Source: Dyella dinghuensis (GTDB taxonomy: Bacteria; Pseudomonadota; Gammaproteobacteria; Xanthomonadales; Rhodanobacteraceae). From it: 64,000 bases of DNA. This document shows, one piece after another, positions 1 through 28,220 of this stretch. Each line of letters begins with the position of its first letter. The first letter of the stretch is position 1. A model generated the notes under the pieces. It ran no database searches. It saw nothing but the letters and a program-made list of their open reading frames with translations, and was not told where the DNA came from. Made by a program: the position numbers and the translations under genes. The stretch spans positions 434,001-498,000 of the forward strand of contig NZ_RYZR01000005.1 of the NCBI RefSeq assembly GCF_003977615.1, in the 5' to 3' direction.

Positions 1-1083
1 CTGCGTATTGACATCGATCTTGTGCTTGATCGACGTGATACGCGCATTGACGGTGCGTGTGCCGATCTTCAGCAAGTAACCGCGATTGGGTAGCAGTGCC
101 TCGTCGCCCATCCACAGCACGTGCGCCGCGAATTGGTCTGCCTCGGGTGCTGGATGCATGGCCTCGGCGATCACATCGCCGCGACTGATGTCCACTTCGC
201 GATCCAATGTCAGCGTGACCGCCTGCCCTGTTCGGGCTTGAGGTAAATCACCGTCGGCCGTGACGATACGTGCGACACGCGCCTGATGCGTGCCGGGTTG
301 GACGACAATCGAGTCACCGACTTTGACCAGTCCACCGCATACCGTGCCGGCGTATCCGCGAAATGTCTGATCCGGGCGATTCACCCATTGCACAGGCATA
401 CGGAATTTGTCTGCCTGCGCCGGCGTGACGGAGATGGTTTCCAGCACATCCAATAACGTTGGGCCTTTGTACCAAGGCATGTTTGACGACGATGCACCAA
501 CGTTATCGCCCGTCAACGCGGCTACGGGAAGCGCACGTACAGCATGGATCCCCAACGTTTGTGCAAGCTCGGCATATGCCTCGCGAATAGCCTCATAAAC
601 ATCTTGCTGAAAGTCGACAAGATCCATCTTGTTGACTGCAAGCACCACATGTCGAATGCCCAGCAGTGCACAGATGTAGGTATGCCGACGGGTTTGGGTA
701 AGCAACCCCTTGCGCGCATCCACCAGCACGACAGCGACATCCGCATGCGATGCGCCGGTCGCCATGTTGCGCGTGTATTGCTCGTGCCCCGGGCAATCGG
801 CCACGACGAAGTTGCGGTGCGTACTGTGGAAATAACGGTAAGCGACATCAATCGTTATGCCCTGCTGGCGCTCGGCGTCAAGACCGTCGGTCAGGAGCGA
901 AAAATCCAGCACGTCGTCATCGGCATGTTGAAGGCGGCTCTCACGCTTCAATGCTTCGATCTGGTCATCAGGAAGCATACCGGCGTCGTAAAGCAAGCGG
1001 CCAAGCAACGTGCTCTTGCCGTCATCGACGCTTCCGCAGGTAATGAAACGCAGCAGACTGCGCTTGGAGTGATCACCCGACAT
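1..1083 (-). CDS. cysN: Sulfate adenylyltransferase subunit 1 (CysN), 3' end outside the window
   Basis: GTPase subunit of ATP sulfurylase, which with CysD makes APS from sulfate and ATP; some homologues carry a fused APS kinase (CysNC), which cannot be judged here. Reading the minus strand from an ATG at 1083 gives 361 codons open to the window edge. Visible GTP-binding motifs are the P-loop GSVDDGKST near residue 17, DCPGHEQY in the switch II region and NKMDLVD. The ATG overlaps the cysD stop by one base (TGATG), so the two are translationally coupled. The family is about 470 residues, or about 630 when fused, so at least a quarter is missing. Family call is secure. Confidence 0.95.
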
Positions 1084-1979
1084 CAGAAGTAACCTTCCTG
1101 TTTCTTGCGCTCCATGGATGCAGAAGGGTCTTGGTCAATGACACGCCCCTGCCGCTCGGAGCTACGCGATTGGATCATTTCGTCGATGATCTCGTCGAGC
1201 GAGGATGCTGCAGACTCGACTGCCCCCGTGAGGGGATAGCAACCGAGCGTGCGGAAACGCACCATACGTTTTTCGATCTTCTCACCTTCGCGCAAGGTAA
1301 AACGATCATCGTCGACCATGATCAACGCACCGTCGCGCTTTACTACCGGACGTTCTTTGGCGAAATACAAAGGCACAACGGGAATATTTTCACGTCGGAT
1401 GTATTGCCATACATCGAGCTCCGTCCAGTTCGACAACGGAAAGACACGTACGCTCTCTCCCTTATGAATATTCGTGTTGTAGAGGTTCCACAATTCCGGA
1501 CGCTGCCGCTTGGGATCCCAACGGTGCTGTGCATTGCGAAACGAGAAAACGCGCTCTTTCGCTCGCGATTTTTCTTCATCGCGGCGTGCGCCGCCAATGG
1601 CAGCGTCGAACGCATGTTTATCCAGCGCCTGCCGCAACGCGACTGTTTTCATGATATCGGTGTGTACCGTCGCACCATGGACGAGCGGCGAGATGCCCTG
1701 ACGAACACCATCTTCGTTGATGTGAACAAGCACCTGGACATCGCCTGCCTTCGCCACGTCATCACGAAACGCGATCATCTCGCGAAACTTCCATGTGGTG
1801 TCGACATGAAGCAGCGGAATGGGCGGTCGCGCTGGAAAAAATGCCTTACGCAGCAGATGCAGCAAGACCGAAGAATCCTTACCAATCGAATACAGCATGA
1901 CTGGCCGCTGAAAGTTGGCAGCGACCTCACGGAAGATATGGATGCTCTCGGCTTCCAGGGAGTCTAAGTAGTCGGACAC
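1083..1979 (-). CDS. cysD: Sulfate adenylyltransferase subunit 2 (CysD)
   Basis: Catalytic subunit of ATP sulfurylase, a cytosolic enzyme of the PAPS-reductase-like superfamily. The 298-residue product is full length for the family. It has the PP-loop-type nucleotide site [13 protein letters not shown] near residue 31 and the conserved blocks [27 protein letters not shown] and [14 protein letters not shown]. The start appears to be GTG (reads as [19 protein letters not shown]) with only a weak ribosome site in front. It is the first gene of a cysD-cysN operon and is divergent from the HAD-UbiA gene at 2197. The pathway product PAPS is also the donor for sulfotransferases such as the one at 14264-15955. 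Confidence 0.95.
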
Positions 1980-3654: not shown

Positions 3655-4958
3655 TGAGTAGCGTGGGCCAATCATGGGGGCGGTATCCCGTCGCCGCACA
3701 GACGATCATTGATATCACTGATCGCCACCGCCCGCTGCCCACCGTCAATGGCGTCGTGCTGCCCTACGGTAATGGCCGCAGTTACGGCGACAGTTGTCTC
3801 AACGATGGCGGCACCTTGCTGCGCGCGCGCGGCATGGATCGCTATATCCGCTTTGACCCCTTTACCGGTCAACTGGAGTGCGAAGCCGGCCTGCTGCTTT
3901 CGGACATATTGGATCTCGTTGTCCCGCAAGGGTGGTTTCCGCCAGTAACGCCCGGCACTCGTTTCGTTACGGTGGGCGGCGCCATCGCCAACGACGTGCA
4001 TGGCAAAAACCATCATGTGACCGGAACCTTCGGCCAACACGTACTCAATCTCGAACTGCTTCGCTCCGATGGCAGCCGCATGGTCTGCAGCCCCGAGCTT
4101 CATCCGGACTGGTTCGCTGCCACGGTGGGTGGCTTGGGATTGACCGGCCTTATCACACGCGCGACGTTGCAACTTCGCCGAATTGCCGGACCGTGGATGA
4201 GCTGCGAAACACGCCGATTCCGGAATCTCGATGGTTTCTTTCATCTTTCCGAAAGCGTGGCTGCCAGGCACGAATACACGGTGGCATGGGTCGATTGTGT
4301 AAGTACGGGCGATGGCCTGGGCCGAGGCCTTTTTACATGCGCCAATCACGCCCCCGCGTCTCCCGATGTAAAACCGGGCGCACCGAATCGGCACCTGTCG
4401 ATGCCTTTCACGCCACCGGTTTCTCTCATCAATCCGCTCAGCCTGAGGGCGTTCAACAGCCTCTACTTCCACCGCCAGCGCGAAGACATAGCCCACGCCA
4501 CGACCCATTACGTGCCGTATTTCTACCCGCTGGACGGTGTGGGCAACTGGAACCGCATCTACGGCCCGCACGGGTTCATGCAATACCAGTGTGTCGTTCC
4601 TCCCACGGCCGCGCAGGAAGGGATCAAGCAGTTGCTTGAAGTTGTCGCCCGGGGCGGTGATGGCTCCTTCTTGGCTGTCCTGAAACAGTTTGGCAACCAA
4701 CCGTCGCCCGGAATGCTTTCGTTCCCCCGCCCGGGCACTACGCTCGCCCTGGATTTCCCCAATCAGGGCGAACGCACGTTACGCTTGCTGGATAAGCTGG
4801 ACGATATCGTAGCGGCAGCCGGTGGCGCGGTTTATCCGGCCAAGGACGCCCGGATGAACGGGCAACGGTTCCGTCAGTATTTTCCGGCGTGGGAAGCCTT
4901 CAGCCATTTCATTGATCCCCGGTTTTCGTCCAGTTTCTGGCGCCGGGTCGCGGAGTAA
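3654..4958 (+). CDS. FAD-linked oxidoreductase, DprE1-like
   Basis: A 434-residue flavoprotein resembling decaprenylphosphoryl-beta-D-ribose 2'-oxidase (DprE1, Rv3790), which oxidises the lipid-linked ribose at C2 as the first half of epimerisation to arabinose. Visible are the FAD-binding block YGNGRSYGDSCL (38-49), the signature GTRFVTVGGA followed by HGKNHH (116-121), and C-terminal YPAKDARM, whose Lys397 matches the catalytic Lys418 of DprE1. By my alignment from memory, Ala365 (TLALDFP) sits where mycobacterial DprE1 has Cys387, the benzothiazinone target. The ATG overlaps the upstream stop (TGATG), and the next gene starts two bases after its stop, so it is coupled with its DprE2-like partner. 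Confidence 0.88.
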   Translation: MSSVGQSWGRYPVAAQTIIDITDRHRPLPTVNGVVLPYGNGRSYGDSCLNDGGTLLRARGMDRYIRFDPFTGQLECEAGLLLSDILDLVVPQGWFPPVTPGTRFVTVGGAIANDVHGKNHHVTGTFGQHVLNLELLRSDGSRMVCSPELHPDWFAATVGGLGLTGLITRATLQLRRIAGPWMSCETRRFRNLDGFFHLSESVAARHEYTVAWVDCVSTGDGLGRGLFTCANHAPASPDVKPGAPNRHLSMPFTPPVSLINPLSLRAFNSLYFHRQREDIAHATTHYVPYFYPLDGVGNWNRIYGPHGFMQYQCVVPPTAAQEGIKQLLEVVARGGDGSFLAVLKQFGNQPSPGMLSFPRPGTTLALDFPNQGERTLRLLDKLDDIVAAAGGAVYPAKDARMNGQRFRQYFPAWEAFSHFIDPRFSSSFWRRVAE

Positions 4959-4960
4959 GC

Positions 4961-5698
4961 ATGCTCAGGATCTTAATCGTCGGCGCTTCATCGGCCATCG
5001 CCGAGGCCACCGCACGCTGTTATGCAGCGCGTGGTGCACGCCTTTTTCTCATCGCCCGTCAATCGCAGCGGCTTGAAGATATGGCGTCGGATTTGAAAGT
5101 GAGGGGCGCTGCTGATGTCGCTTTCGCAACACTGGATGTCAACCAGCTCGACGCGCATGGCGACGTGCTATCGCAAGCGTGGACGTGGCTGGGTGAAGTC
5201 GACGCGATGCTTGTTGCCCACGGCACGCTGCCCGACCAGAACGCCTGCGAAGCATCAGCCGAGCTTGCCGTGAAAGAATTCAACACCAACGGCACGTCAA
5301 CCATCGCATTGATGACCCTCGCGGCCAATCGATTTGAAGCGCAGAGACACGGCACATTAGCGGTCATTTCGTCTGTAGCCGGGGATAGAGGGCGCCAAAG
5401 CAACTATCTCTACGGTTCCGCCAAAGCAGCGGTCACTGCGTTCGCCAGCGGATTGCGCCAACGCCTGACCAAGGTTGGTGTCAACGTATTGACCATCAAG
5501 CCTGGTTTTGTGGATACACCCATGACGCGCGATTTCAAGAAGAGTGCACTTTGGGCCAAGCCAGAAAGTATTGCGCGCAGCATTGTCCGCGCCGTCGATC
5601 GTGGCCGCAGCGTGGTCTATCTGCCCTGGTTCTGGCTGCCCATCATGCTCATCATTCGCCACGTTCCTGAATTCGTTTTCAAACGCATAAAGCTCTAA
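4961..5698 (+). CDS. Short-chain dehydrogenase, DprE2-like
   Basis: A 245-residue classical SDR resembling DprE2 (Rv3791), which reduces the 2-keto lipid-linked pentose to the arabinose epimer. It has the N-terminal nucleotide motif GASSAIAEA (8-16), a Ser138 in ISSVAG, and the catalytic pair Tyr151/Lys155 in YGSAKAAV. The C-terminus (LPWFWLPIMLIIRHVPEFVFKRI) is hydrophobic and basic, as expected for a membrane-attached enzyme acting on a polyprenyl substrate. The start is two bases after the DprE1-like stop. SDRs are diverse, so the specific role rests mainly on the neighbours and the N-terminal motif form. Confidence 0.85.
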   Translation: MLRILIVGASSAIAEATARCYAARGARLFLIARQSQRLEDMASDLKVRGAADVAFATLDVNQLDAHGDVLSQAWTWLGEVDAMLVAHGTLPDQNACEASAELAVKEFNTNGTSTIALMTLAANRFEAQRHGTLAVISSVAGDRGRQSNYLYGSAKAAVTAFASGLRQRLTKVGVNVLTIKPGFVDTPMTRDFKKSALWAKPESIARSIVRAVDRGRSVVYLPWFWLPIMLIIRHVPEFVFKRIKL

Positions 5699-5703
5699 AG
5701 CCC

Positions 5704-6654
5704 ATGGACAAGATTGCAAAGCACTCCAAGCTTGTGCTGACCGGAGCCGCAGGCTTGGTCGGGCAAAATCTCATCGTCGAACTTAAGGCACAGGGCTACA
5801 CTCATCTGGTCGCCATCGACAAGCACGAATACAACCTCGGTATTCTTCGCCATCTACATCCAGACGTCCAAACGATCCTCGCCGACCTTGCCGAGGATGG
5901 CGAATGGACCGAGGCATTTGCCGGGGCCGCCTGTGTGGTGCAATTGCATGCGCAAATTACCGGCAAGTACACGGAGCTGTTCACGCGAAACAACATTAGC
6001 GCCACTCATCGAGTACTCGATGCCATGCGCATTCATAAGACCCCCTACCTGGTGCACATCAGCTCCTCCGTTGTCGTATCTGTAGCCAACGATGACTACA
6101 CCAACACGAAGAAAGCGCAGGAAAAGCTAGTTGTCGAAAGCGGTATCCCTCATTGCGTGTTGCGCCCGACACTTATGTTTGGCTGGTTCGACCCCAAGCA
6201 CTTGGGCTGGCTTTCACGCTTCATGGCGAAGACGCCAGTTTTTCCAATCCCTGGCGATGGCCGTTACATGCGTCAACCACTGTATGAGCGCGACTTTTGC
6301 CGCTGTATCGCACGCTGTATCGAAACACAGCCAGATGGTGACACCTACGACGTTGTCGGAGATGTCCGTATCGATTACGTCGATATTATTAAGACGATTA
6401 AGCAGGCAAAAAAACTGCGCACGCTGATCGTACACATTCCCTATGGCCTGTTCCAATTTTTGTTGCGCTTATACGCACTCTTCAGCAACAGACCCCCATT
6501 CACCGCTGATCAGTTGAAAGCATTGACCGCAGGCGATGATTTCAAAGGCATCGATACTGAAAAAGTATTTGGCTTTCGACAAACACCATTTGCCGATGCG
6601 GTGCGCGAAAGTTACTGCGACCCACGTTACTCCGCCATTGTCCTGAAGCGCTGA
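5704..6654 (+). CDS. NAD-dependent epimerase/dehydratase-family protein
   Basis: A 316-residue extended SDR. It has the Rossmann motif TGAAGLVG (14-21), SSSVVV in the catalytic-serine region and a YTNTKKAQEK segment giving a YxxxK catalytic pair. No substrate can be read from the sequence. It starts five bases after the DprE2-like gene and precedes the flavoprotein gene, so it belongs to the lipid-linked pentose operon. The mycobacterial ribose-to-arabinose route needs no such enzyme; it may modify the sugar further, or supply or alter a precursor. Family secure, function unknown. Confidence 0.8.
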   Translation: MDKIAKHSKLVLTGAAGLVGQNLIVELKAQGYTHLVAIDKHEYNLGILRHLHPDVQTILADLAEDGEWTEAFAGAACVVQLHAQITGKYTELFTRNNISATHRVLDAMRIHKTPYLVHISSSVVVSVANDDYTNTKKAQEKLVVESGIPHCVLRPTLMFGWFDPKHLGWLSRFMAKTPVFPIPGDGRYMRQPLYERDFCRCIARCIETQPDGDTYDVVGDVRIDYVDIIKTIKQAKKLRTLIVHIPYGLFQFLLRLYALFSNRPPFTADQLKALTAGDDFKGIDTEKVFGFRQTPFADAVRESYCDPRYSAIVLKR

Positions 6655-6679
6655 TGCGCGACTAGCCGGATATCAATCC

Positions 6680-7969
6680 ATGACACAAGCACAACGCATT
6701 GCCATTCTGGGTGCTGGACCGATGGGGCTCGCCGTAGCCTACCAGCTGGCGCGCGACGGATATCGTCCCGTTGTTTTCGAAGCGGATGATCGTGTGGGAG
6801 GCATGACAGCGAGCTTTGACTTCTCGGGACTCAGCATCGAGCGTTACTATCACTTTCATTGCATCTCCGACAGCGGTTTTCTGAAGATGCTTGAGGAACT
6901 TGGTCTGGCCGACCGCATGCGGTGGACCGAGACAAAGATGGGTTACTGGTACGGCAAACGTCTGCAGCCTTGGGGCAATCCCGTCGCCCTGTTGAAGTTC
7001 AAAGGACTCAGTTTATTTGCCAAGGTGCGATATGGCCTGCATGCATTCCTCTCGACAAAACGTAAAGATTGGCGCCCCCTAGATCATGTAGAAGCTACAG
7101 GATGGATCCGTCGCTGGGTGGGCGACGAGGCATGGCGTGTACTTTGGAAGCGCCTCTTCGATTACAAGTTCTACGACTACAGTGACAATCTCTCGGCAGC
7201 CTGGATATGGAGTCGAATTCGTCGCATTGGAAATTCGCGCTACGACCTGTTTCGAGAGAAGCTTGGCTACCTTGAAGGTGGCTCAGACACTCTTCTGACA
7301 GCGCTAAAGGCATCCATCGAACAGCACGGCGGCGAGATACGACTATCCACGCCCGTGCGCAAGATCGTGATTGAAGACGGCGCCGTCAAAGGTGTCGAGA
7401 CGGCCCAAGGCATAGAAGATTTCGAAAAAGTCGTCAGTACAGTGCCGCTGCCATTCCTCCCGCGTCTGATGCCAGATTTGCCATCCGACATTCTTTCGAA
7501 GTTCTCTGCACTCAAGAACGTGGCGGTCGTCTGCGTGATCGCAAAGTTGAAACGACCGGTCACCGAAAACTTCTGGCTCAACACTAATGATGACGACATG
7601 GACATCCCCGGCCTGGTCGAGTATACGAATTTGCGCCCGTTGGACCAGCACGTCGTCTATGTACCCTTTTACATGCCGGGCGAGCATCCCAAATATGGCG
7701 ATGCCGATGATGTCTTTACCAATAAGGTGCGCCGCTATCTGAAGATGATCAACCCGTCATTGACCGATGACGACTTCATCGATATCAGGGCAAATCGCTA
7801 CCGGTTTGCTCAACCGATCTGCCCTCCTGGATATCTGGATTCGATTCCTCCGCGAAAACTTCCGGTTCACGGCTTGTGGGCTGCAGATACGTCCCATTAT
7901 TACCCCGAGGATCGGGGAATTTCCGAAAGTATCGACTTCGGTCGTATGCTGGCTAAGGAAGTAGAATGA
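6680..7969 (+). CDS. FAD-dependent oxidoreductase, protoporphyrinogen-oxidase/amine-oxidase superfamily
   Basis: A 429-residue flavoprotein. The N-terminus has the dinucleotide motif GAGPMGLAVAYQLA followed by FEADDRVGG, and the C-terminus has the second FAD block GLWAADTSHYYPEDRG, typical of the HemY/amine-oxidase/UDP-galactopyranose-mutase superfamily. It has no obvious membrane segment. It overlaps the gtrA-like gene by four bases (ATGA) and follows the epimerase gene by 25 bases, so it is part of the same operon. A role on a lipid-linked sugar, such as oxidation or ring rearrangement, is speculation based on context; a haem role is unlikely here. Confidence 0.78.
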   Translation: MTQAQRIAILGAGPMGLAVAYQLARDGYRPVVFEADDRVGGMTASFDFSGLSIERYYHFHCISDSGFLKMLEELGLADRMRWTETKMGYWYGKRLQPWGNPVALLKFKGLSLFAKVRYGLHAFLSTKRKDWRPLDHVEATGWIRRWVGDEAWRVLWKRLFDYKFYDYSDNLSAAWIWSRIRRIGNSRYDLFREKLGYLEGGSDTLLTALKASIEQHGGEIRLSTPVRKIVIEDGAVKGVETAQGIEDFEKVVSTVPLPFLPRLMPDLPSDILSKFSALKNVAVVCVIAKLKRPVTENFWLNTNDDDMDIPGLVEYTNLRPLDQHVVYVPFYMPGEHPKYGDADDVFTNKVRRYLKMINPSLTDDDFIDIRANRYRFAQPICPPGYLDSIPPRKLPVHGLWAADTSHYYPEDRGISESIDFGRMLAKEVE

Positions 7970-8367
7970 TCCGGCAGCTTGTTTCGTCGCAGTTCATGCG
8001 TTTTTTATTCACTGGCGGTCTCGCTGCCTTAGTGAACTTCGGCAGTCGCATTCTCTACAACCGGTGGATGGGATTTTCCGCGGCAGTGTGCGTTGCCTAC
8101 GTGACCGGCATGATCACAGCCTTCGTGCTTGCTCGCTGGCTCGTCTTCGGCAAAGGCGGGCAATCGACGCACCGGTCCGCCGCGATCTTCCTGCTCGTCA
8201 ATATTTTCGCGATTGCCCAGACCTGGGCGGTCAGCATTTTATTGGCCGACTATCTTCTTCCTGCCATGGGCGTTCGACGATTCGTGCACGAGATCGCACA
8301 TGCGGTAGGCGTTATGATCCCCGTATTTACCAGCTATATCGGGCACAAACGCTATTCATTTCGGTAA
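7966..8367 (+). CDS. GtrA-family membrane protein
   Basis: A 133-residue protein with four predicted membrane segments, matching the GtrA family in length and in the opening FLFTGGLAALVNFGSRILYN and the closing YIGHKRYSF. GtrA proteins are linked to movement of polyprenyl-phosphate sugars across the inner membrane. The mycobacterial member Rv3789 lies beside the dprE1/dprE2 genes. It is last in the operon and overlaps the flavoprotein gene by four bases. It most likely flips or anchors the lipid-linked pentose for use in the periplasm. It is convergent with the gene at 8383-9654, with a 15-bp gap. Confidence 0.88.
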   Translation: MIRQLVSSQFMRFLFTGGLAALVNFGSRILYNRWMGFSAAVCVAYVTGMITAFVLARWLVFGKGGQSTHRSAAIFLLVNIFAIAQTWAVSILLADYLLPAMGVRRFVHEIAHAVGVMIPVFTSYIGHKRYSFR

Positions 8368-8382
8368 TGCATTCCACCCCTA

Positions 8383-9654
8383 TCATTTGAAAATACTTCG
8401 ATCGACAAGCTGCTGACACTGGGTTCCCTTGAGAGCCACGTGCCAGGCTATCGTTTTAGGGCCCGCGAACTGTATAGGTAGCTGATAAATGTCGCTACCC
8501 GCGTTAATGCAGCGACCCAGTTCTGCACGCCATCTAAACGTGTCGTACTCCTGCCTGCCGTGCATCAAAAATTGAACAAAGGCGCATACAAATACGACGC
8601 CGATGAAAGCTCGCACTCTGGAACCGGCCTCGCCATAAATGTAGAGCAGAAGCCACGTCAGGAAAATGTACGGATAAAAGAAGTAGCGCGGGCCGCCAAG
8701 CACAGGATGCAGCTGATCGATCGCAACTCGACTGATCGATGCAATGATCGCAGCGCATAATGCGCCGAGCAGCATAACGAAGTACTTGTCGTGCCACTTT
8801 TGCCGACCGATTGCGAACCCAAAAATGACTCCGAGAATCGCGAGTCCTATGACACAAAGCAGTGCGATGGGGGGGCGTTCAGTCGAAATCACATAGTGAC
8901 CAAAAAAGCGTACTACGATCTGTACCGCGTCAAAGTATCGCTTACCGAATCCCATTGGCACGGTTGCAGTTACCACCGAGATGCACTGGATCACTGCAAC
9001 AAGTGCAGCCACAGCAAACACCTCCTTATCTCCGCGCTGTGGCTGCTTGAATGCTCGATAACCCAATAGGGCGGCGGCTGGTACTGCCATGGGGGAAGAA
9101 AGCCCACCAACCACTGTCAACACGCATCGCCAGATCGTCCTTGGCCGCTCGTCTACGCGCCAGAAAACCACAACGAAAGACCACAAAGCGCCCCACCAGA
9201 AAGCATATTCCGATACCGCAAATACCTCTGGTTGCGTAGGAATCAACGCTACAGCAACCGCCGCCAGCTTGGGAAAACGCAAATGAGTGGGACTGTACGC
9301 GATGAGCGCGATCGTCCCGATCTCGAAGATTAGCGTGAGCGCATACGCGATCGCAGGATAATGCGAGGCGGATAAGCTAATTGAAGTCAAGAAGATCAGC
9401 TTCGCGGGCAACACTAGATACCCTGCGACGGGAGCCCACAACGAGTGCCAACCTTGCTCAAGATAGGCAGGTAGAGTGATCGTGCCTTCTTCCACCCACA
9501 CGTAGGGATGGTGCCACTCGACGGGCCGTCTCCATACGAAAACAATAAGCAGCAAAATGAGAATCCCGGGTACGGACGACATCCAGTCTCGGATCCGCGG
9601 AAAAATACTTTTCATCATGTTGGTGTCAGTCACTTCGATTAATGTACTCAACAT
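8383..9654 (-). CDS. Polytopic membrane protein, possible GT-C-type glycosyltransferase
   Basis: A 423-residue protein with roughly ten hydrophobic segments and a short N-terminal cytosolic part. I do not recognise the family with certainty. After the first membrane segment there is a loop with acidic residues (YVWVEEGTITLPAYLEQGW), the kind of place where GT-C enzymes keep their catalytic acid. It is convergent with the lipid-linked pentose operon and would be a natural user of the flipped donor, but this is inference from position. The ATG at 9654 has no clear ribosome site; ATG codons at 9618 and 9615 are alternatives. Base use is more AT-rich than in the housekeeping genes of the window. 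Confidence 0.6.
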   Translation of the reverse strand: MLSTLIEVTDTNMMKSIFPRIRDWMSSVPGILILLLIVFVWRRPVEWHHPYVWVEEGTITLPAYLEQGWHSLWAPVAGYLVLPAKLIFLTSISLSASHYPAIAYALTLIFEIGTIALIAYSPTHLRFPKLAAVAVALIPTQPEVFAVSEYAFWWGALWSFVVVFWRVDERPRTIWRCVLTVVGGLSSPMAVPAAALLGYRAFKQPQRGDKEVFAVAALVAVIQCISVVTATVPMGFGKRYFDAVQIVVRFFGHYVISTERPPIALLCVIGLAILGVIFGFAIGRQKWHDKYFVMLLGALCAAIIASISRVAIDQLHPVLGGPRYFFYPYIFLTWLLLYIYGEAGSRVRAFIGVVFVCAFVQFLMHGRQEYDTFRWRAELGRCINAGSDIYQLPIQFAGPKTIAWHVALKGTQCQQLVDRSIFK

Positions 9655-10051: not shown

Positions 10052-10705
10052 TTAGACCGCCCGCGTCGGCACGGACTCAACATCCACCAGAGGAGCGCGC
10101 CCAGCGACAGAGTATTCTCGAAGCGGGTACTGGAGACCGGGCGCTCGTGGTGAATCCTTTTTCACTCGCAGAAACACACCCCATTCAAGCGCGACGTTGA
10201 ACATGTGTGTCAGGGCGAAGTTGAGTGGGATGTGCATGCCGCGAAGCTCTTCGAGGATCCCCGGATAAAGATTGTAATGGGTCCGCTCCCACAGAAAATA
10301 TCCGTGCGAGTCGCCCAGATAGAAACGGTCGTACTCATAGCAAATGTGCTTAAACGACGTTTCACTAAAGAACGTGTAGTGGCCAAAGAGCAGACCATCG
10401 TCGCTCTTGCCGTATGGCGTCCAAATCTCAATAGTTGCATCGTGTCTGCATACTCGAAGCAACTCCCGGAATACCTCGGGATGGCGCTTGATATGTTCGA
10501 ACGAGTGGCTTGAGTAAACGTAGTCGATGGAATCGTCTTCGAATGGAAGCCGATTATTTTCGTAATCCATAACCAAATCGACGCAAGGAGTCGAAAGGAT
10601 ATCGATACCGAAGAATCCATCTCGCTTGTTGCTCCCACAACCAAGCTCAAGTTGTCGGATGGTGGTGCTCGATTGCTGGCTTGCATGCATCTTCATCGAC
10701 TCCAC
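10052..10705 (-). CDS. Class I SAM-dependent methyltransferase
   Basis: A 217-residue protein with motif I as LELGCGSNKRDGFFGID, then DYENNRLPFEDDSIDYVYSSHSFEH, the usual layout of small methyltransferases found in polysaccharide clusters. It is the last gene of the O-antigen operon, with a gap of about 77 bp behind the GT4 gene. It probably methylates a sugar, a glycan intermediate or a nucleotide sugar. The first possible start is GTG at 10705; the ATG at 10690 has a better-spaced GGAG ribosome site. The acceptor cannot be told from sequence. Confidence 0.8.
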   Translation of the reverse strand: MESMKMHASQQSSTTIRQLELGCGSNKRDGFFGIDILSTPCVDLVMDYENNRLPFEDDSIDYVYSSHSFEHIKRHPEVFRELLRVCRHDATIEIWTPYGKSDDGLLFGHYTFFSETSFKHICYEYDRFYLGDSHGYFLWERTHYNLYPGILEELRGMHIPLNFALTHMFNVALEWGVFLRVKKDSPRAPGLQYPLREYSVAGRAPLVDVESVPTRAV

Positions 10706-14263: not shown

Positions 14264-15955
14264 TCATTTTCTTATACGAAGTCGCCGCAAAATTCTAAAA
14301 CCGATACTTCGTTGCAGTTCTTCGATCTGCAACTTCTGCTGTTGCAGGGCCGTCGTCAGACTTTCGATCTCCTGCAGCGACTTTGCATGTTCCACCCGTG
14401 TCTTCTGTAAATCTGCAGACGAACGCTCTTCGCTTCGCTGAATATCGTTCTGAAAATGCGTAGTCAGCTCAAGCCGCTCCCTAGCACGCGTCAAATCCTT
14501 GACTACATTCTCGTATTCAACCCGCTTGAGCTCCATTGCCATCGTGGCCAGCTGCCCACTGGCATCATCATTGGCATCGACAAGTTTCTTGCATTGGCTA
14601 TTAGATTCGGCCAATTGTTCGCTCAACGACGAGTTTTTAGCGATCAGCTCATCGACGATGTCCAATGTGGAAAGCAATTCGATATCCAGTCGCAGAACAC
14701 GCCCTCGGCGAAGAATGTCTTCAGGCCAAGTGAAAAGCACCTGCGGGTCGCTGTCGGTACGGACGAACCTCTTCTCAATTAAATCGGCTTCATATTTAGT
14801 AAAACCAATGAGCGAGAAATGCTTCCCCTGAGAAAAATTCCAAATAACCTGACTGTCATCATCCAGAAGAACAAGCGAATGGATGACGCAGTGAGCCGCA
14901 CTATCCACAGGATCCAGTCGATACCGTGTACTAAAAGTTTCCGAATGGCTGTAATTGAGAAGCGGAAAATCAAGCTGGCACCGCCCCCCTTCCGTTAGCT
15001 CCATACGAGACTGACGCGTCTCATCAAAAGGCTGCCCTTCTTGAGCATAATAGAGCCGCGCACTGCTTTTCGATTTAGGTGACCCTCCGGACTTCTCCAC
15101 CTGCTCCAAGCTACCCAGCAGCTCACTGAAGTCGACAACTTCATCAGCCAAATTGGATAATTTTTTCCAGCTCTCCGATGAATTGCCTGACGAGATGATC
15201 TGATCCACAGTCTCAACCATCCGCCGAGGCAATGAAGGAAGACTTTCGTTTGCCGTGTCCTGCTTCTGAGTGCGAAGCCCGTCGTCAAGAAATGAGCTGA
15301 GTGCATCTTTCCGCTCAATGATCGGAACCGACCAGTGAATACCCAGCGCATCCCCTAAACGCGTCAACGTGGACACCGGATCTCGCAAAAGCTGGTCATA
15401 GGCAACCATGTAACGAGGTGTGTCGCGCGTCGCAACTTCTGCTTCTGCCAAATGCTGCATCCACGACACAACACCGAAGGAACGACTGAAATGATGAACG
15501 CGCTCAAGCGACGCGGCCACTTCTATGGGTGACCGAGTCACAAATACGGTTGCCACCGGTATATCCAGTTCATGTAGCACGTCCAGCCACAAAGGCGCCA
15601 GGCGACACAAACGCGGATCCTTGATTCCCCAGAGAGGCACATCGGAAAAATCGCGCTTAATGAGCGCCTTGATATTCGCTCTTGCTTCCTGTGCGGCACT
15701 GCTCTTTAGCCAATCTTGTGGTAAAGGTTCCAGGCTGTGCCAAAAAGTCTTCATGGAATGCAGAAGCTGATCGTTGATTCGAACCGCATCCGCGTGTTCC
15801 CAGAACCCCTTCGCATTCATGTTTTCAGGGCTGAGCAGATGCGAACCAAGATCCATGCCCAGCAAGTTCAAGCATCGCGTCATGGCCGAGGTGCCGCTGC
15901 GATGCATACCGAGCACCAGAACACAGAGACGACTGGATTTAGATGACGCATTCAT
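14264..15955 (-). CDS. Sulfotransferase-like protein with C-terminal coiled coil
   Basis: A 563-residue protein. Residues about 10-300 form a sulfotransferase domain: the PAPS 5'-phosphosulfate loop is VLGMHRSGTSAM (14-25) and the 3'-phosphate site is VTRSPIEVAASLE (139-151). Residues about 300-430 look beta-rich. From about 440 to 550 there is a long heptad-rich helix starting near LDIVDELIAKNSSLSEQL, ending in a basic tail (RILRRLRIRK) suited to membrane contact. The ATG at 15955 has AAGGA in front and starts five bases after the wzt stop; a TTG at 15964 is the alternative. Position behind wzt plus the coiled coil resemble WbdD-type chain terminators, but with a sulfotransferase instead of a kinase/methyltransferase. 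Confidence 0.8.
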   Translation of the reverse strand: MNASSKSSRLCVLVLGMHRSGTSAMTRCLNLLGMDLGSHLLSPENMNAKGFWEHADAVRINDQLLHSMKTFWHSLEPLPQDWLKSSAAQEARANIKALIKRDFSDVPLWGIKDPRLCRLAPLWLDVLHELDIPVATVFVTRSPIEVAASLERVHHFSRSFGVVSWMQHLAEAEVATRDTPRYMVAYDQLLRDPVSTLTRLGDALGIHWSVPIIERKDALSSFLDDGLRTQKQDTANESLPSLPRRMVETVDQIISSGNSSESWKKLSNLADEVVDFSELLGSLEQVEKSGGSPKSKSSARLYYAQEGQPFDETRQSRMELTEGGRCQLDFPLLNYSHSETFSTRYRLDPVDSAAHCVIHSLVLLDDDSQVIWNFSQGKHFSLIGFTKYEADLIEKRFVRTDSDPQVLFTWPEDILRRGRVLRLDIELLSTLDIVDELIAKNSSLSEQLAESNSQCKKLVDANDDASGQLATMAMELKRVEYENVVKDLTRARERLELTTHFQNDIQRSEERSSADLQKTRVEHAKSLQEIESLTTALQQQKLQIEELQRSIGFRILRRLRIRK

Positions 15956-15960
15956 GGTTA

Positions 15961-17319
15961 TCAAGTTCCTTCAAGTGCCTCAAGCGTCACACCATCGACT
16001 AGATTTACCCAGCCGGTCGACAAACGATCGGATGAAGCCATCACCTTGAACATCAGCACGTCGATTCGGCGATCAAGGTAAGTTTCCTCCTCACCGATAC
16101 GCCCCAGCACTCCAGCATTCATGAAGTAAGCGCCTCCGGCCAGATCACAATCAAAACCGTAGCGCAAAGAGTACGTTTTACCGGCATCAACTATTTCGAT
16201 CGCATTTTGACTAGCCGCACTGACGGCGCCGGCAATTTCTATGCCCGTAATAGACTTGATCATCATGCCAAACCGCACGCCTACTATGGTCTGTTCAAAC
16301 TTGACCTGATAAACGTAAAAGTAGCGCTCACCAGCATTTAGAACGTTGACTCGCCGTCCATCCATGGTCTCCAGATGAGGGTCATGGATCACAGCTCCCT
16401 GGCTCGAGTATATGACTTCACTCTGCGACTTCAGATTTTCGTCGTAATACGCCTCGATTACATCGTGTTTCTTTACCTGAGATGGTTCAGGCGCATTGCT
16501 CGTGGCGCTAGTTACCGTGAGCGCAGGAGCGCCGCCCTTATATTCTTGCCGCATAGCCAAGCGGAGCTCCATAGCCCGCTCCTCTGGCGCATAAAGCATT
16601 CGCTGATATCGGGAAATGACCGCCTTAGGTAACCCATCTGCAAGAACTTCACCTCGATCCAAAAGGATCGCACGATCGCAAAGCTCCACCACAATGCCTG
16701 CGGAATGTGAGACGAACAGAACGGTGCACCCGGCATCGCGCAATTTGTCTATTCGCGCAAAACACTTCCGCTGGAACGCTTCATCGCCCACAGATAAAGC
16801 CTCGTCCACTACCAGTAAGTCGGGCTCGACGTGAATGGCGACCGCAAATGCCAAACGCACATACATGCCGCTGGAGTACGTTTTTACTGGCCGGTCTATA
16901 AATTCCCCAATTTCAGCAAAGGCAAGAATTTTGTCCAGGCGCTCCGTAATCTGAGCGCGCGTCAATCCCAGCACGGTGCCATTGAGATAAACGTTTTCAA
17001 GGCCAGTGAACTCCGGATTAAAACCTGCTCCCAACTCCAGTAGCGCAGCAACCCTGCCTCGTACATGCACGTCGCCGAATGTTGGCGCAAGCGTGCCACA
17101 GAGAATTTGCAGCAATGTGGACTTTCCGGAACCATTGCGGCCGACGATTCCCACTGTTTCGCCGCGTCGGATGGAAAAGTTAACGTCGGAAAGCGCGCAG
17201 AACTCACGATGCCATTTGCTTCCGCCAAAGATCATCTGCATCAGACGATAGTGAGGCTTGTCATAAATGGGGAATACCTTTGCAACCCCTTTAGCCTCAA
17301 CGATCAGTTCAGAGGACAT
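15961..17319 (-). CDS. wzt: O-antigen ABC transporter ATPase (Wzt) with C-terminal glycan-binding domain
   Basis: ATP-binding subunit of the exporter that moves finished O-antigen across the inner membrane. The 452-residue product has Walker A GRNGSGKS (60-67), signature YSSGM, and Walker B LLVVDEAL. Residues about 290-452 form an extra beta-rich domain (NVLNAGERYFYVYQVKF onward) like the Wzt domain that recognises the modified chain end. The ATG at 17319 has a good AAAGGGG site and overlaps the wzm stop by 11 bases; a longer frame up to 17355 is less likely. An extended Wzt usually goes with a dedicated chain terminator, which fits the next gene. Confidence 0.93.
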   Translation of the reverse strand: MSSELIVEAKGVAKVFPIYDKPHYRLMQMIFGGSKWHREFCALSDVNFSIRRGETVGIVGRNGSGKSTLLQILCGTLAPTFGDVHVRGRVAALLELGAGFNPEFTGLENVYLNGTVLGLTRAQITERLDKILAFAEIGEFIDRPVKTYSSGMYVRLAFAVAIHVEPDLLVVDEALSVGDEAFQRKCFARIDKLRDAGCTVLFVSHSAGIVVELCDRAILLDRGEVLADGLPKAVISRYQRMLYAPEERAMELRLAMRQEYKGGAPALTVTSATSNAPEPSQVKKHDVIEAYYDENLKSQSEVIYSSQGAVIHDPHLETMDGRRVNVLNAGERYFYVYQVKFEQTIVGVRFGMMIKSITGIEIAGAVSAASQNAIEIVDAGKTYSLRYGFDCDLAGGAYFMNAGVLGRIGEEETYLDRRIDVLMFKVMASSDRLSTGWVNLVDGVTLEALEGT

Positions 17320-18166
17320 CGGCGAAGCCCCTTTGCGTGGCCATAAACCATGCATGACCTAGCCAAGCGACAAAAAAACCAATCGCAGTCGCCAGGGCAA
17401 GCTCGGACCAATCGGGCATCGCTCCAACCAAAGCAACCGTACGCGCCTGATCGATGAAGAACGTCAGTGGATTCAAGTAAAACAACCTCTGCAAAGCGTT
17501 CGGCAGAATATTCACTGGAACGATGGCCGAGGACAGAAAGAGTAAGGCCGTAGCCAGAACCGGCATGACCTGACTTATATCCCTGAGATACACACCAAGG
17601 GATGCCAAAAACCACGAGACGCCAAGGGTCACAAGCATCAACGGTATGAAAATGATGGGCACTATCACAATGGTCGCGTGCAACCTTTGCTCAGTAGCAA
17701 GCATCAACAAGGCCAATACACATGTATTGATCAGCGCATGGAAAATTGCTGAAAAGATCATTGGCCAAGGAAGAATATCCAGCGGGAAAACTACTCGCTT
17801 GACGAAGTTGGGATTGGCCACAATCAGTGTGGCAGCACGAGTTATGCACTCCGAAAAAAATCCATGCACAATCAAGCCCACGAATAAAATGACTGCGTAA
17901 GAATGGTTGCCTCCAGCACTTTGCGGCCAACGACTCTTCAACACCTCGCCAAAAGCAAAAGCATAAACACCCAACATCAGAAACGGGCTAATTACCGACC
18001 ATGCCAACCCGAAGCTGGCACCGCGATATCGCCCCAGAACTTCACGCTTACTGAGCTCCCACACCAACGATTTATGCCGGGTCAAAGACGCAAATGGCCA
18101 CTCCCATCTCCTGCGCTCTTGCAGTTCCGTGACGTCACTCCGGCCACCCTGAGTGGATTTACTCAA
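17309..18166 (-). CDS. wzm: O-antigen ABC transporter permease (Wzm)
   Basis: A 285-residue ABC-2 type membrane subunit with six hydrophobic segments and the conserved N-terminal interface helix KSLVWELSKREVLGRYRGASFGLAWSVISP. It forms the channel for the polymer together with Wzt. The stop overlaps the wzt start by 11 bases. It is the first gene of the O-antigen operon. The 131 bp upstream, between it and the metB-type gene, should hold the promoter. The order metB-wzm-wzt is the arrangement known for the Xanthomonas lipopolysaccharide locus. Confidence 0.93.
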   Translation of the reverse strand: MSKSTQGGRSDVTELQERRRWEWPFASLTRHKSLVWELSKREVLGRYRGASFGLAWSVISPFLMLGVYAFAFGEVLKSRWPQSAGGNHSYAVILFVGLIVHGFFSECITRAATLIVANPNFVKRVVFPLDILPWPMIFSAIFHALINTCVLALLMLATEQRLHATIVIVPIIFIPLMLVTLGVSWFLASLGVYLRDISQVMPVLATALLFLSSAIVPVNILPNALQRLFYLNPLTFFIDQARTVALVGAMPDWSELALATAIGFFVAWLGHAWFMATQRGFADVL

Positions 18167-26051: not shown

Positions 26052-28220
26052 TTACCAAGCCGACGCATAGACCAGGTTGTAGGCGTTCACCGAGCCGATA
26101 CCGGTGGCGAAATCCCAACCCGTGCCCGTGCCATAGGCCTTGTCATAGGCGGACGTGGACGTCGACAGCACACCGTACGTGCCCGAGGGCTTGTAGCAGC
26201 TGTGCGTGCCGGTGCAGTTCACATCCATATCGCCCTGGGTGATGTCGTAGAAGATGCACGACGTACCCACAGCGTTGCCGTTGCTGGAGTTGCAGGTGCT
26301 GCTGCCGGATGCGCCGTACTCCGTGTTAGCCAGGGAGTAGTACACAGAGTCCGGATTGCCTGCGCCGGTGGTGAAGCCGTTGTGCTGATCAACCAGTGCC
26401 TGGATACCGGCCATGATCGGCGAAGCGAACGACGTGCCACCTGCGCCGGACCAGCCGCTTGGAGCGCCCGTGCAAGGCTCGGATCCGTCGTTTTTGCCGG
26501 CGGTGCTGGAGTTGCTATAGCAGTAGACGTAGTAGTGACCCCACAGACCATTCGCCGCGAACAGCGAGACGTCCGGGATATCGCGCACGCCGTCAGACGG
26601 ATTGCCGACCAGACCAGACTGCCACGACGGCTTGGGCCAGCCCGCACACGTGCCGCTGACGACACCGCTGGTGCTGGCTTTGCCGGTCGCACAACCGCTG
26701 GGGCCACCGCTGCCGGAACCCGTCGTCAGGAAGTCCGCTTTACCGGTGCTGCTATTGCAGAAGCCAGTCGAGCCGTAGGGCGTGCTGTAGCCTTCTTTCG
26801 AGGACAGCAGTACGCCCGCGCAGGAGTCGTTCCACGGAATTTCATTGATGTACGACAGTGCCGACTCGTAGGTCGAGCTGTTGGTCGAGCTCCAGTACGT
26901 GCTGTTGGTGCCGGCATAGGTATCGCCGAAGTCGGTACCACCCACCGCCACGTTGTACGGTGTGGAAGCAAAACCGCTTACCGCGATGCCGTGCGTTGCA
27001 TTGGCCTGGTCCGCATCGCAGCTGGCCGCGCCTTCGTCACCCGAAGAGACGAACACCGAGATACCTTCCGCCGCCGCACTCTCGTACGTCGAGCTGTAGG
27101 CCGCATTCTGCGTGGCGCCGTTTTCCGCTTCGCACTCACCGTAGCTCACACTCCAGATCGTCGGCGCAGAACCTGCTTCAAGCAGATCTTCCATCGCGAT
27201 CAGGCCACCAAACGTGGTCGACGTGTCTTTGCACGACACGAGTTCGAGTGTCGCACCCGGTGCAGCAGCGCCCGCGTACTCCACGTCCAGCTCGGCTTCG
27301 CCGTCGTTACCGACAACGTCACCCGGGTTGGTGCAGCTTTCCGGATGAACCTGGCTGAAGGTGGCGGTCGGCAGGCCGAAGGTCGAGCGGAAAGTGGTGA
27401 TGTCACTGGTCGAATACACGTTGGTGTCTTCGATCAACGCAATCGTTTCGCCGGTGCCGGTGACACCCGCGTTGAACACGGAGGTCAGATTGTAGATCTT
27501 CGCCAAGTCCGCCGGCGTCACCGCTTGAAAGGTGGAACCGCTTTCGGTGAACGTGTAATCCACATGCTCCTTCTTGTTGGTGTGCGGACGGAAGTCGTTG
27601 AGCGACACCACGCCATCGACCACACCTGCGAATGCCGCCGGAATCTGCGGATCGCTCATGTTGCCGATGTGGCTTTCGCCCTTCACGTTCAGATGGTGGA
27701 TTTCGGTGGCGAACGCCTGACGCACCTGCCCGGCCGTACCGGAGAAGTCGATCGTCATGCCGTTGCCGTACACGCGATTGACGGTGAAACCCTGTGCGGT
27801 CAGCCAACTGGTAATCGCATCGACGTCCATCTGCGACGGACCGTATTCCGCACCGAGCTGGGCATTGGTCAGCCATTGATGATAGTTCGGCGAACCCTTC
27901 GTGACCTGCTGCTGCATCAGTGCCTGCAGCGCCTGCTCACGATCTGCAGGGCGCTTCAGTTGCAGCAACATGTGATCCATCGTGGTCGTGTCGGCAACGC
28001 GACCCTGATCGTTGCTGGCCGTTGCAAAAGGCGATGTATTGCCCGCAAGCATGGTGCGATCATTATTGTTCGGCGATTGCGTAATTTGCGGCTTCGACAG
28101 CATGCCGAGCGTGCCGGCATGACTGCTGTTGGCATACATCGACGCCACACTCATGGCTAAAACGGTCAACACAAACTTGGCAGCACGATGGCCGCCATGA
28201 CGTACGGATCCAAATCTCAC
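26052..28220 (-). CDS. S53 (sedolisin/xanthomonalisin-type) serine-carboxyl peptidase precursor
   Basis: A secreted acid peptidase of about 722 residues. A signal peptide (AKFVLTVLAMSVASMYANSSHA) precedes a pro-kumamolisin activation domain, with LKRPADREQALQALM and YHQWLTNAQLGAEYG. The catalytic domain carries Glu and Asp in NDGEAELDVEYAG and the catalytic Ser in GGTSFASPIMAG. It ends soon after the catalytic domain, with no extra C-terminal domain. The GTG at 28220 has GGGGAG eight bases upstream and leads directly into the signal peptide; the longer frame to 28331 lacks both. Expected to be active in acidic surroundings outside the cell. Confidence 0.9.
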   Translation of the reverse strand: MRFGSVRHGGHRAAKFVLTVLAMSVASMYANSSHAGTLGMLSKPQITQSPNNNDRTMLAGNTSPFATASNDQGRVADTTTMDHMLLQLKRPADREQALQALMQQQVTKGSPNYHQWLTNAQLGAEYGPSQMDVDAITSWLTAQGFTVNRVYGNGMTIDFSGTAGQVRQAFATEIHHLNVKGESHIGNMSDPQIPAAFAGVVDGVVSLNDFRPHTNKKEHVDYTFTESGSTFQAVTPADLAKIYNLTSVFNAGVTGTGETIALIEDTNVYSTSDITTFRSTFGLPTATFSQVHPESCTNPGDVVGNDGEAELDVEYAGAAAPGATLELVSCKDTSTTFGGLIAMEDLLEAGSAPTIWSVSYGECEAENGATQNAAYSSTYESAAAEGISVFVSSGDEGAASCDADQANATHGIAVSGFASTPYNVAVGGTDFGDTYAGTNSTYWSSTNSSTYESALSYINEIPWNDSCAGVLLSSKEGYSTPYGSTGFCNSSTGKADFLTTGSGSGGPSGCATGKASTSGVVSGTCAGWPKPSWQSGLVGNPSDGVRDIPDVSLFAANGLWGHYYVYCYSNSSTAGKNDGSEPCTGAPSGWSGAGGTSFASPIMAGIQALVDQHNGFTTGAGNPDSVYYSLANTEYGASGSSTCNSSNGNAVGTSCIFYDITQGDMDVNCTGTHSCYKPSGTYGVLSTSTSAYDKAYGTGTGWDFATGIGSVNAYNLVYASAW

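What the first reader, a model, noticed from the sequence alone, without database searches (positions are those of the whole stretch)
14264..15955. Sulfotransferase/coiled-coil protein as a possible O-antigen chain terminator
WbdD-type terminators combine an end-capping enzyme with a coiled-coil ruler, are encoded next to wzt, and go with a Wzt that has a C-terminal recognition domain. All of that is present, but the enzyme domain has PAPS sites (HRSGTS and TRSPIEVAASLE), not kinase/methyltransferase or Kdo-transferase motifs. A sulfate cap read by Wzt would be a new termination chemistry as far as I know.
Basis: partly seen in the sequence, partly recalled or inferred. Interest (0 to 1): 0.7.

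Follow-up and report, generated by a model that had tools for sequence, protein, structure and literature searches.

The report
Sulfotransferase likely caps exported sugar chains
A bacterial gene for building surface sugar chains appears to end each chain with a sulfate group, using an enzyme on a long rod that may measure chain length, beside an exporter whose sugar-recognising pocket looks adapted to a charged end; distant bacteria have the same arrangement, but the sulfate has not been shown chemically.

Summary
On the minus strand, 14264-15955 encodes a 563-aa protein with a PAPS sulfotransferase domain (Pfam Sulfotransfer_3, residues 12-209), an uncharacterised middle domain and, in an AlphaFold model, one continuous 119-residue helix. 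It directly follows a wzt with a Wzt_C cap-binding domain. The terminator reading is well supported by inference. In the family, 36 of 76 tabulated sulfotransferase hits directly follow Wzt_C. In 80 sampled Wzt_C loci without this sulfotransferase, the next gene is a methyltransferase in 51, including a WbdD homologue. The middle domain lies behind both sulfotransferases and Methyltransf_24 enzymes, as if cap enzymes were swapped on one chassis. Wzt_C domains next to sulfotransferases cluster together across phyla, Gram-positives included. Where a Trp stacks on the methyl cap in Aquifex Wzt, 43 of 43 sulfotransferase-linked domains have Arg; slots with only a methyltransferase have Trp in 40 of 41. 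Wzt and the sulfotransferase may simply be co-inherited: the NBD tree does not reject the same grouping. No chain-end chemistry is available, and the main prior survey (Mann 2019) could not be read, so priority is unknown. Verdict: probable sulfate-capping variant of the capped ABC-transporter pathway.

The parts
14264..15955 (-). Sulfotransferase / middle domain / long-helix protein (P0001, 563 aa), the proposed sulfate-capping chain terminator
15329..15922 (-). Sulfotransfer_3 (PF13469) domain, residues 12-209
   Evidence: Pfam 29.9 bits, cut-off 27; Foldseek to sulfotransferases
15884..15910 (-). 5'-phosphosulfate-binding loop GMHRSGTSA, residues 16-24
   Evidence: G16, H18-S23 invariant in 28 of 28 rows; role recalled from the sulfotransferase family
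15506..15538 (-). 3'-phosphate-binding motif TRSPIEVAASL, residues 140-150
   Evidence: R141 and S149 invariant in 28 of 28 rows; role recalled
14687..15058 (-). Middle (MID) domain, about residues 300-423, no Pfam family; shared with Methyltransf_24 slot proteins
   Evidence: iterated HMM search, 25 hits (its frame numbering is 5 higher); mostly pLDDT under 50
14309..14665 (-). Single 119-residue helix, residues 431-549, the putative coiled-coil ruler
   Evidence: AlphaFold model
14270..14305 (-). C-terminal basic helix, residues 551-562, possible membrane anchor
   Evidence: helix in the model; membrane role inferred by analogy with WbdD (passage)
15961..17355 (-). wzt, ABC-transporter ATPase with C-terminal cap-binding domain
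   Evidence: PF00005 84.5 bits, PF14524 95.4 bits
16003..16413 (-). Wzt_C (carbohydrate-binding) domain, residues 315-451, with R361 and R429
   Evidence: residue comparison; fold match to 2r5o, 5hno, 8dky
17309..18166 (-). wzm, ABC-transporter membrane protein
   Evidence: PF01061 87.1 bits
12202..14085 (-). Double GT2 glycosyltransferase, likely polymerase; its two modules are fused to the sulfotransferase in L031
   Evidence: PF00535, two stretches; fusion in L031
10783..12060 (-). WsaF-type glycosyltransferase
   Evidence: PF21374 169 bits, PF22772 159 bits
10052..10705 (-). 217-aa SAM methyltransferase without a long tail; decoration or rival cap enzyme
   Evidence: PF08241 36.1 bits
19685..23245 (+). 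rmlB, rmlA, rmlC, rmlD-like genes (dTDP-rhamnose supply)
   Evidence: read from the ORF translations; names recalled, not run against a family library
1..1979 (-). cysD and the start of a cysN/C gene (PAPS supply)
   Evidence: CysD NF009214 529 bits; only cysD match in the genome; APS-kinase domain 228.8 bits in a 637-aa frame just left of the window, whose length fits the open cysN frame

Best explanation
P0001 is the chain terminator of an ABC-transporter-dependent, probably rhamnose-rich O-polysaccharide. Its N-terminal sulfotransferase moves sulfate from PAPS to the growing non-reducing end, blocking further elongation. The long C-terminal helix holds that active site away from the membrane-bound polymerase (GT2-GT2 and WsaF) and so sets the minimum chain length. 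The C-terminal domain of the adjacent Wzt then binds the sulfated end, through Arg429 and probably Arg361, and only capped chains are exported. Shown: domains, fold, rod in a model, gene order, slot exchange with methyltransferases, residue pattern in Wzt_C. Inferred: PAPS as donor, terminal position of the sulfate, ruler function, sulfate recognition, rhamnan backbone.
For: Motif residues invariant in 28 of 28 rows and sulfotransferase fold. Helix of 119 residues in the model. 36 of 76 tabulated family hits lie directly after a Wzt_C match, 35 of the 52 best-scoring. Slot exchange: in 51 of 80 sampled other Wzt_C loci the next gene falls in a methyltransferase cluster, incl. a WbdD homologue (L084, E 1e-45 to 4ax8). 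MID domain behind the sulfotransferase here and in L031, L035, L162, L170, L210, and behind Methyltransf_24 in 11 of 13 slot proteins of that cluster. Wzt_C tree of 129 rows: the sulfotransferase label needs 2 changes against at least 31 in 200 shuffles; 43 linked and 5 nearby rows sit in one 53-row branch, SH-aLRT 96, incl. Paenibacillus, Cohnella, a Bacillota MAG, a Phycisphaerales MAG and a Desulfocapsaceae MAG (unchanged at 2 with three left-out rows added). Position 429: R in 43 of 43 linked and 5 of 5 nearby. In the family set it is W in 27 of 27 FkbM/Methyltransf_24 slots and R in 10 of 10 slots with a methyltransferase plus a kinase-like domain. It aligns with Trp362 of A. aeolicus Wzt, which stacks on the methyl cap and whose change to Leu essentially abolishes LPS binding (PMC9445017, passages). 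Position 361 basic: 39 of 43 linked against 3 of 81 not linked.
Against: No chemistry. The NBD tree also clusters the sulfotransferase loci (5 changes, shuffles at least 31) and does not reject one clade (p-AU 0.253), so co-inheritance of wzt with its neighbour explains the pattern without cap recognition. The W/R split is one change on the tree, hence not independent evidence. R429 is also found in 7 of 7 DUF4915 loci of unknown chemistry, 3 of them basic at 361 too. 17 of the 52 best family hits are not next to a listed Wzt_C; two that I looked at are sulfotransferase-GT fusions directly after metB with no wzt between (L043, L057). In genome contigs only 17 of 80 loci have the gene within 600 nt after wzt, 2 of them without a detected Wzt_C. 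Heptad scan not significant for this protein. A separate methyltransferase exists in the locus. The A. salmonicida O-antigen structure, with a sulfotransferase-domain gene after wzt, shows no such residue (PMC4483657).
Confidence: 0.7

Rival explanations
1. The sulfotransferase decorates internal sugars of the repeat (or a side chain) and has no role in termination; its place next to wzt is operon convenience.
For: Sulfated capsular polysaccharides and their gene clusters are published for marine bacteria (PMC11641403, PMC11766843; seen in search listings only). Related sulfotransferase-GT fusions occur without an adjacent wzt, one beside a second sulfotransferase, WcbI and GSCFA genes (L057).
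Against: N-terminal place before a long helix, exchange with methyltransferases in one slot, shared MID domain with methyltransferase proteins, and Arg at the cap-contact position of Wzt_C are not expected. In A. salmonicida a sulfotransferase-domain gene sits between wzt and wbbB, yet the authors found no such residue in the O-antigen structure (PMC4483657, passages); homology of that protein to P0001 was not tested.
Confidence: 0.15
2. The 217-aa methyltransferase at 10052-10705 makes the cap, and P0001 is mainly a scaffold or adds a secondary group.
For: Methyl and methylphosphate ends dominate the candidate systems (passage in PMC10629545); a homologue of this methyltransferase (E 4e-69) also accompanies the sulfotransferase in L040.
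Against: It is not in the slot after wzt and has no ruler; the 27 FkbM and Methyltransf_24 slots have W at position 429 and V or I at 361, while the window's Wzt has R at both. Motif residues of the sulfotransferase are kept.
Confidence: 0.06
3. The association is a frozen gene order: Wzt and the sulfotransferase are inherited together, and the Wzt_C residues reflect ancestry, not sulfate binding (the enzyme may still cap).
For: NBD and C-terminal trees both cluster by slot gene; W/R is a single change on the tree.
Against: The pairing persists from Gammaproteobacteria to Bacillota while the tail of the protein and the neighbouring genes change; several distinctive residues fall on aligned cap-pocket positions.
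Confidence: 0.09

Closest known systems
WbdD of E. coli O9a / K. pneumoniae O3 (kinase-methyltransferase with coiled-coil ruler)
   Same: Cap enzyme at the N terminus, long helical tail, C-terminal helix, gene beside a wzt with a cap-binding domain; anionic cap. The solved Wzt C-terminal domain 2r5o (E. coli O9a, recalled) has Arg at the same position by alignment.
   Different: Sulfotransferase instead of methyltransferase and kinase; extra MID domain; no WbdD hit for P0001 in the PDB sequence search at E up to 1.
WsaE/WsaF of Geobacillus stearothermophilus S-layer glycan
   Same: WsaF homologue and double GT present; in L031 the sulfotransferase is fused to two GT modules. In X. oryzae BXO8 and X. 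citri 306 the first five genes on the metB side have homologues in the same order in the Geobacillus cluster (PMC2238763, passages).
   Different: The methyltransferase of WsaE (recalled) is replaced by a sulfotransferase; in the window it is split from the GTs.
K. pneumoniae O4, O7 and O12 terminators
   Same: Cap enzyme at the far end of a coiled coil; Wzt with a cap-binding module (PMC11231755, abstract and passages).
   Different: Kdo or methylphosphate caps, no sulfotransferase (words beginning 'sulf' occur 0 times in its main text).
A. salmonicida wbsalmo ORF19
   Same: Sulfotransferase-domain gene directly after wzt (PMC4483657, passages).
   Different: 216 aa, too short for such a rod; function unassigned; GTs in the separate WbbB.

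Membership tests
PAPS-dependent sulfotransferase (Sulfotransfer_3) | Family profile over the curated cut-off | tested here: met
   29.9 bits, cut-off 27; modest margin
PAPS-dependent sulfotransferase (Sulfotransfer_3) | 5' and 3' phosphate-binding motifs conserved, sulfotransferase fold | tested here: met
PAPS-dependent sulfotransferase (Sulfotransfer_3) | Transfers sulfate from PAPS | not testable with these tools
   needs an assay; PAPS-forming genes exist in the genome
Ruler-type chain terminator of capped ABC-transporter glycans | Cap enzyme N-terminal to a long coiled coil | tested here: inconclusive
   119-residue helix in the model, but heptad scan 39 of 200 shuffles as good
Ruler-type chain terminator of capped ABC-transporter glycans | Gene paired with a wzt that has a cap-binding domain | tested here: met
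Ruler-type chain terminator of capped ABC-transporter glycans | Membrane-associated C-terminal helix that recruits the polymerase | tested here: inconclusive
   basic helix 551-562 in the model; no binding test
Ruler-type chain terminator of capped ABC-transporter glycans | Cap present at chain ends and needed for length control and export | not testable with these tools
   needs chemistry and mutants
WbdD proper | Methyltransferase and kinase domains | tested here: not met
   Only Sulfotransfer_3 at E up to 0.01 in Pfam; no WbdD hit at E up to 1 in the PDB search
Wzt with cap-binding module | Wzt_C domain with the solved-structure fold | tested here: met
   95.4 bits; model matches 2r5o, 5hno, 8dky

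The most novel reading that the evidence does not exclude
Sulfate is a further, cross-phylum class of glycan export cap. Gram-negative O-antigens and Gram-positive surface glycans use one sulfotransferase family, partly on an exchangeable MID-plus-rod chassis, and the Wzt cap-binding domain encodes the charge of the cap: Trp at the Trp362 position for methyl, Arg for methylphosphate or sulfate, with a second Arg (361) marking sulfate. If so, cap chemistry can be read from wzt sequence alone.
Probability: 0.45. Interest if true: 0.78.

Novelty: new variant of a known kind. Interest (0 to 1): 0.64.

Why it matters
In the passages I saw, the caps shown to control chain length and export are methyl, methylphosphate and Kdo; pyruvate is a candidate. 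A sulfate cap would add a charged chemistry that links sulfur metabolism to surface-glycan length. Such a cap is easy to miss because it would occur once per chain. The Wzt_C residue rule would let cap chemistry be predicted for uncharacterised loci and tested with one purified domain.

Tried and rejected
Coiled-coil support by a home-made heptad scan: not significant for the window protein, although 11 of 14 other short sulfotransferase slot proteins of the family set had at most 10 of 200 shuffles as good. I do not rest the ruler on it.

Separate co-evolution of the Wzt C-terminal domain: it needed 2 changes against 5 for the NBD (2 against 6 with three more rows), but the AU test did not reject one sulfotransferase clade on NBD data (p 0.253), so I dropped the claim that the binding domain tracks the sulfotransferase better than the rest of Wzt.

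MID domain structure: the model has pLDDT under 50 for residues 290-386 and 396-431, so no fold is claimed. A PDB sequence search of P0001 found four weak hits at E 0.26 or more.

cysD-cysN/C beside the cluster as a dedicated PAPS supply: rejected, since it is the only cysD match in the genome and so likely housekeeping.

Rows dropped before counts. The 76 sulfotransferase hits are those I copied down to E 2.2e-18; its weaker hits were not used. The Wzt_C list was cut short by the tool; I used the 150 listed. Six of the 36 directly following loci were not used in the slot analysis. Of the 114 Wzt_C loci without this sulfotransferase I fetched 80 (79 random plus the window genome's second locus); in 2 of them (L074, L095) my script found no wzt. 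In one search I left out ten rows: six duplicates of genomes already in the set or of the window (L151, L153, L154, L192, L253, L255), a fused frame (L257), L226 (sulfotransferase upstream of wzt), and L201 and L237, which were not shown to be duplicates; one search puts L201, L237 and L226 back and the C-terminal result stays at 2 changes (R429 44 of 44 linked, basic 361 40 of 44 linked against 3 of 82). The five nearby rows were counted as neither state. L199 and L230, adjacent to wzt without a detected Wzt_C, are not in the trees.

Full report
What is there. The window lies on contig C8 of a 4.2-Mb genome. Minus-strand genes run metB, wzm, wzt, P0001, a double GT2, a WsaF-type transferase and a small methyltransferase (metB named by recall); rml-like genes lie on the other strand (read). 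The ATG of P0001 is 5 nt after the end of wzt; a TTG start would overlap it by 4 nt. Pfam gives Sulfotransfer_3 for residues 12-209 and nothing else at E up to 0.01. AlphaFold with 27 relatives gives a confident sulfotransferase domain, an unmodelled middle, and one helix 431-549, about 178 angstrom if straight at 1.5 angstrom per residue. The eight best solved matches are sulfotransferases; PFKFB-type kinases follow.

The slot. I surveyed 197 genomes of the family with P0001 (91 with a match at E up to 1e-10) and with Wzt_C (167 with a match at E up to 1e-5). 36 of the 76 sulfotransferase hits that I tabulated start 45-93 nt after a listed Wzt_C match on the same strand; among the 52 best-scoring hits, 35 do and 17 do not. 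Four of those 17 are a short stand-alone form in another locus (L053, L055, L058, L068). The order metB-wzm-wzt-sulfotransferase recurs across genera, and the sulfotransferase often heads proteins of 1000-1700 aa, in several of which GT2 modules were detected. L031 joins sulfotransferase, MID and the two GT modules that are separate genes in the window.

What else fills the slot. Of the 114 listed Wzt_C loci without this sulfotransferase I fetched 80. I clustered the next gene on the strand within 700 nt and scanned members with Pfam. Clusters: class I methyltransferases 21 (20 scanned), FkbM methyltransferases 14 (1 scanned), Methyltransf_24 13 (1 scanned; two of the 13 start over 500 nt from wzt), DUF4214-methyltransferases 3 (3 scanned): together 51 of 80. 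Then DUF4915 7 (2 scanned), a group of 3 without Pfam family (1 scanned), one distant Sulfotransfer_3 (L129), 16 with another or no clear slot gene, and 2 without a detected wzt. Among the 16, L111 has a Sulfotransfer_2-type gene 136 nt on (22.1 bits, cut-off 22), and L071, the second Wzt_C locus of this same genome, is followed by two TPR-sulfotransferases. L084 is a WbdD homologue over methyltransferase and kinase (E 1e-45 to 4ax8). So the slot holds cap-type enzymes, and the sulfotransferase is one option among them.

One chassis, two cap enzymes. An iterated profile of the middle domain (25 hits in the last round) finds it in P0001, in sulfotransferase proteins from Paenibacillus (L170) and Cohnella (L210, E 4e-4), in L031, L035 and L162 among others, and in 11 of 13 proteins of the Methyltransf_24 cluster. 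In those measured it is followed by a proline-free charged tail. Most sulfotransferase slot proteins lack a detected MID. This is still the best structural argument that sulfotransferase and methyltransferase do the same job.

Beyond the family. In 17 of 80 the sulfotransferase domain begins within 600 nt after wzt, 15 with a detected Wzt_C; in four more a Wzt_C-bearing wzt ends 0.8-1.1 kb upstream (L165, L183, L193, L208). Six loci had under 1.5 kb of upstream sequence. The 17 include Dyella, Rhodanobacter, Stenotrophomonas, Sulfuricella, Lamprocystis, a Desulfocapsaceae MAG, a Phycisphaerales MAG, Paenibacillus, Cohnella and a Bacillota MAG; some repeat genomes of the family set. In a phylum draw, 39 of 299 genomes had Wzt_C at E up to 1e-10. 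Of the 30 loci given, two outside the family (L246, L250) have the sulfotransferase next to wzt, one (L258) has it 663 nt on, and L260 has a different sulfotransferase-like protein judged by eye.

Co-variation with Wzt. On a tree of 129 Wzt C-terminal domains the sulfotransferase label needs 2 changes (200 shuffles: minimum 31, mean 35.9). All 43 linked and 5 nearby rows lie in one 53-row branch with 5 others (L252, L256 and three DUF4915 loci). The NBD tree needs 5 changes and does not reject a single clade. With three left-out rows restored the counts are 2 and 6. The whole Wzt therefore goes with the slot gene, and co-inheritance cannot be separated from selection by these trees.

Residues. 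Sulfotransferase-linked domains differ from the rest at many positions. Aligned to A. aeolicus Wzt, R429 sits where Trp362 stacks on the methyl cap, and N413, G415 and M365 sit at pocket residues Thr346, Ala348 and Leu300 (PMC9445017, passages; mapping by hand). R429 is present in 43 of 43 linked rows. Non-linked rows: W 55, R 23, V 2, Y 1 of 81. In the family set, W is found in 27 of 27 FkbM and Methyltransf_24 slots and in 13 of 24 other methyltransferase slots, R in 10 and Y in 1. The 10 R cases are three with Pkinase hits below Pfam's cut-off (L084, L092, L138; L084 confirmed as WbdD-like) and seven that all carry an N...DLEW motif in a second domain, which I read as kinase-like (by eye, no Pfam support). 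So W stands in 40 of 41 slots with a methyltransferase and no kinase-like domain seen. The solved domain 2r5o (E. coli O9a, methylphosphate cap; both recalled, and PMC11231755 gives phospho-methyl for K. pneumoniae O3) also has Arg there by alignment. A second basic residue at 361 marks sulfotransferase-linked domains: 39 of 43 against 3 of 81. By strand alternation it should face the pocket, which is inference. W/R is a single change on the tree, so this is a consistent pattern, not repeated evolution.

Sugar and donor. WsaF and double-GT homologues with rml-like genes suggest a rhamnan (inference). PAPS can be made: cysD and a CysN/C with an APS-kinase domain lie at the window's left edge, with another strong APS-kinase match elsewhere.

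Literature. In the A. salmonicida O-antigen cluster a sulfotransferase-domain gene follows wzt and the authors found no such residue in the known structure (PMC4483657, passages). That fits a once-per-chain cap, or an inactive gene. In searches for sulfotransferase terminators no listed title or abstract start, and no passage I opened, describes one; the library lacks most subscription journals. Of the 2019 census I saw only citations. Its abstract, as I recall it, speaks of predicted new chemistries, so sulfate may already be on its list.

Verdict. A capped-glycan pathway of known kind with an unusual cap enzyme. The terminator role is likely (0.7); sulfate at the chain end follows from the enzyme class and the Arg pattern but is not shown.

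Noticed in passing
window 2197-9654: UbiA-HAD fusion (PRK08238, 660 bits), FAD oxidase, and by reading a short-chain dehydrogenase, epimerase, small GtrA-like membrane protein and a large membrane protein: resembles the three-component pentofuranose system of PMC11127046 (passages), with DprE1/DprE2-like genes that would suggest an arabinofuranose side chain.
   Followed up: partly
L071 (window genome, contig C6:1428-11844): Second Wzt_C-bearing wzt of the same genome, followed by two TPR-sulfotransferases of another Sulfotransfer_3 subfamily.
   Followed up: partly
L075, L076, L094, L101, L106, L109, L115: DUF4915 cluster in the terminator slot (2 of 7 scanned with Pfam); Wzt_C has Arg at the cap-contact position in 7 of 7. 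Possibly an unknown anionic cap.
   Followed up: no
L103, L113, L150: About 280-aa protein with a VIGHPGHE motif directly after wzt, no Pfam family in the one scanned (L103); possible further cap enzyme.
   Followed up: no
L057:3174-6730: A sulfotransferase-GT fusion lies beside another Sulfotransfer_3 gene, WcbI and GSCFA genes, with no wzt between it and metB; another use of the module.
   Followed up: partly
window 26052-28331: Large secreted protease-like ORF that by eye looks like a pro-kumamolisin peptidase; a similar ORF lies near the second wzt (L071:7854-10229).
   Followed up: no
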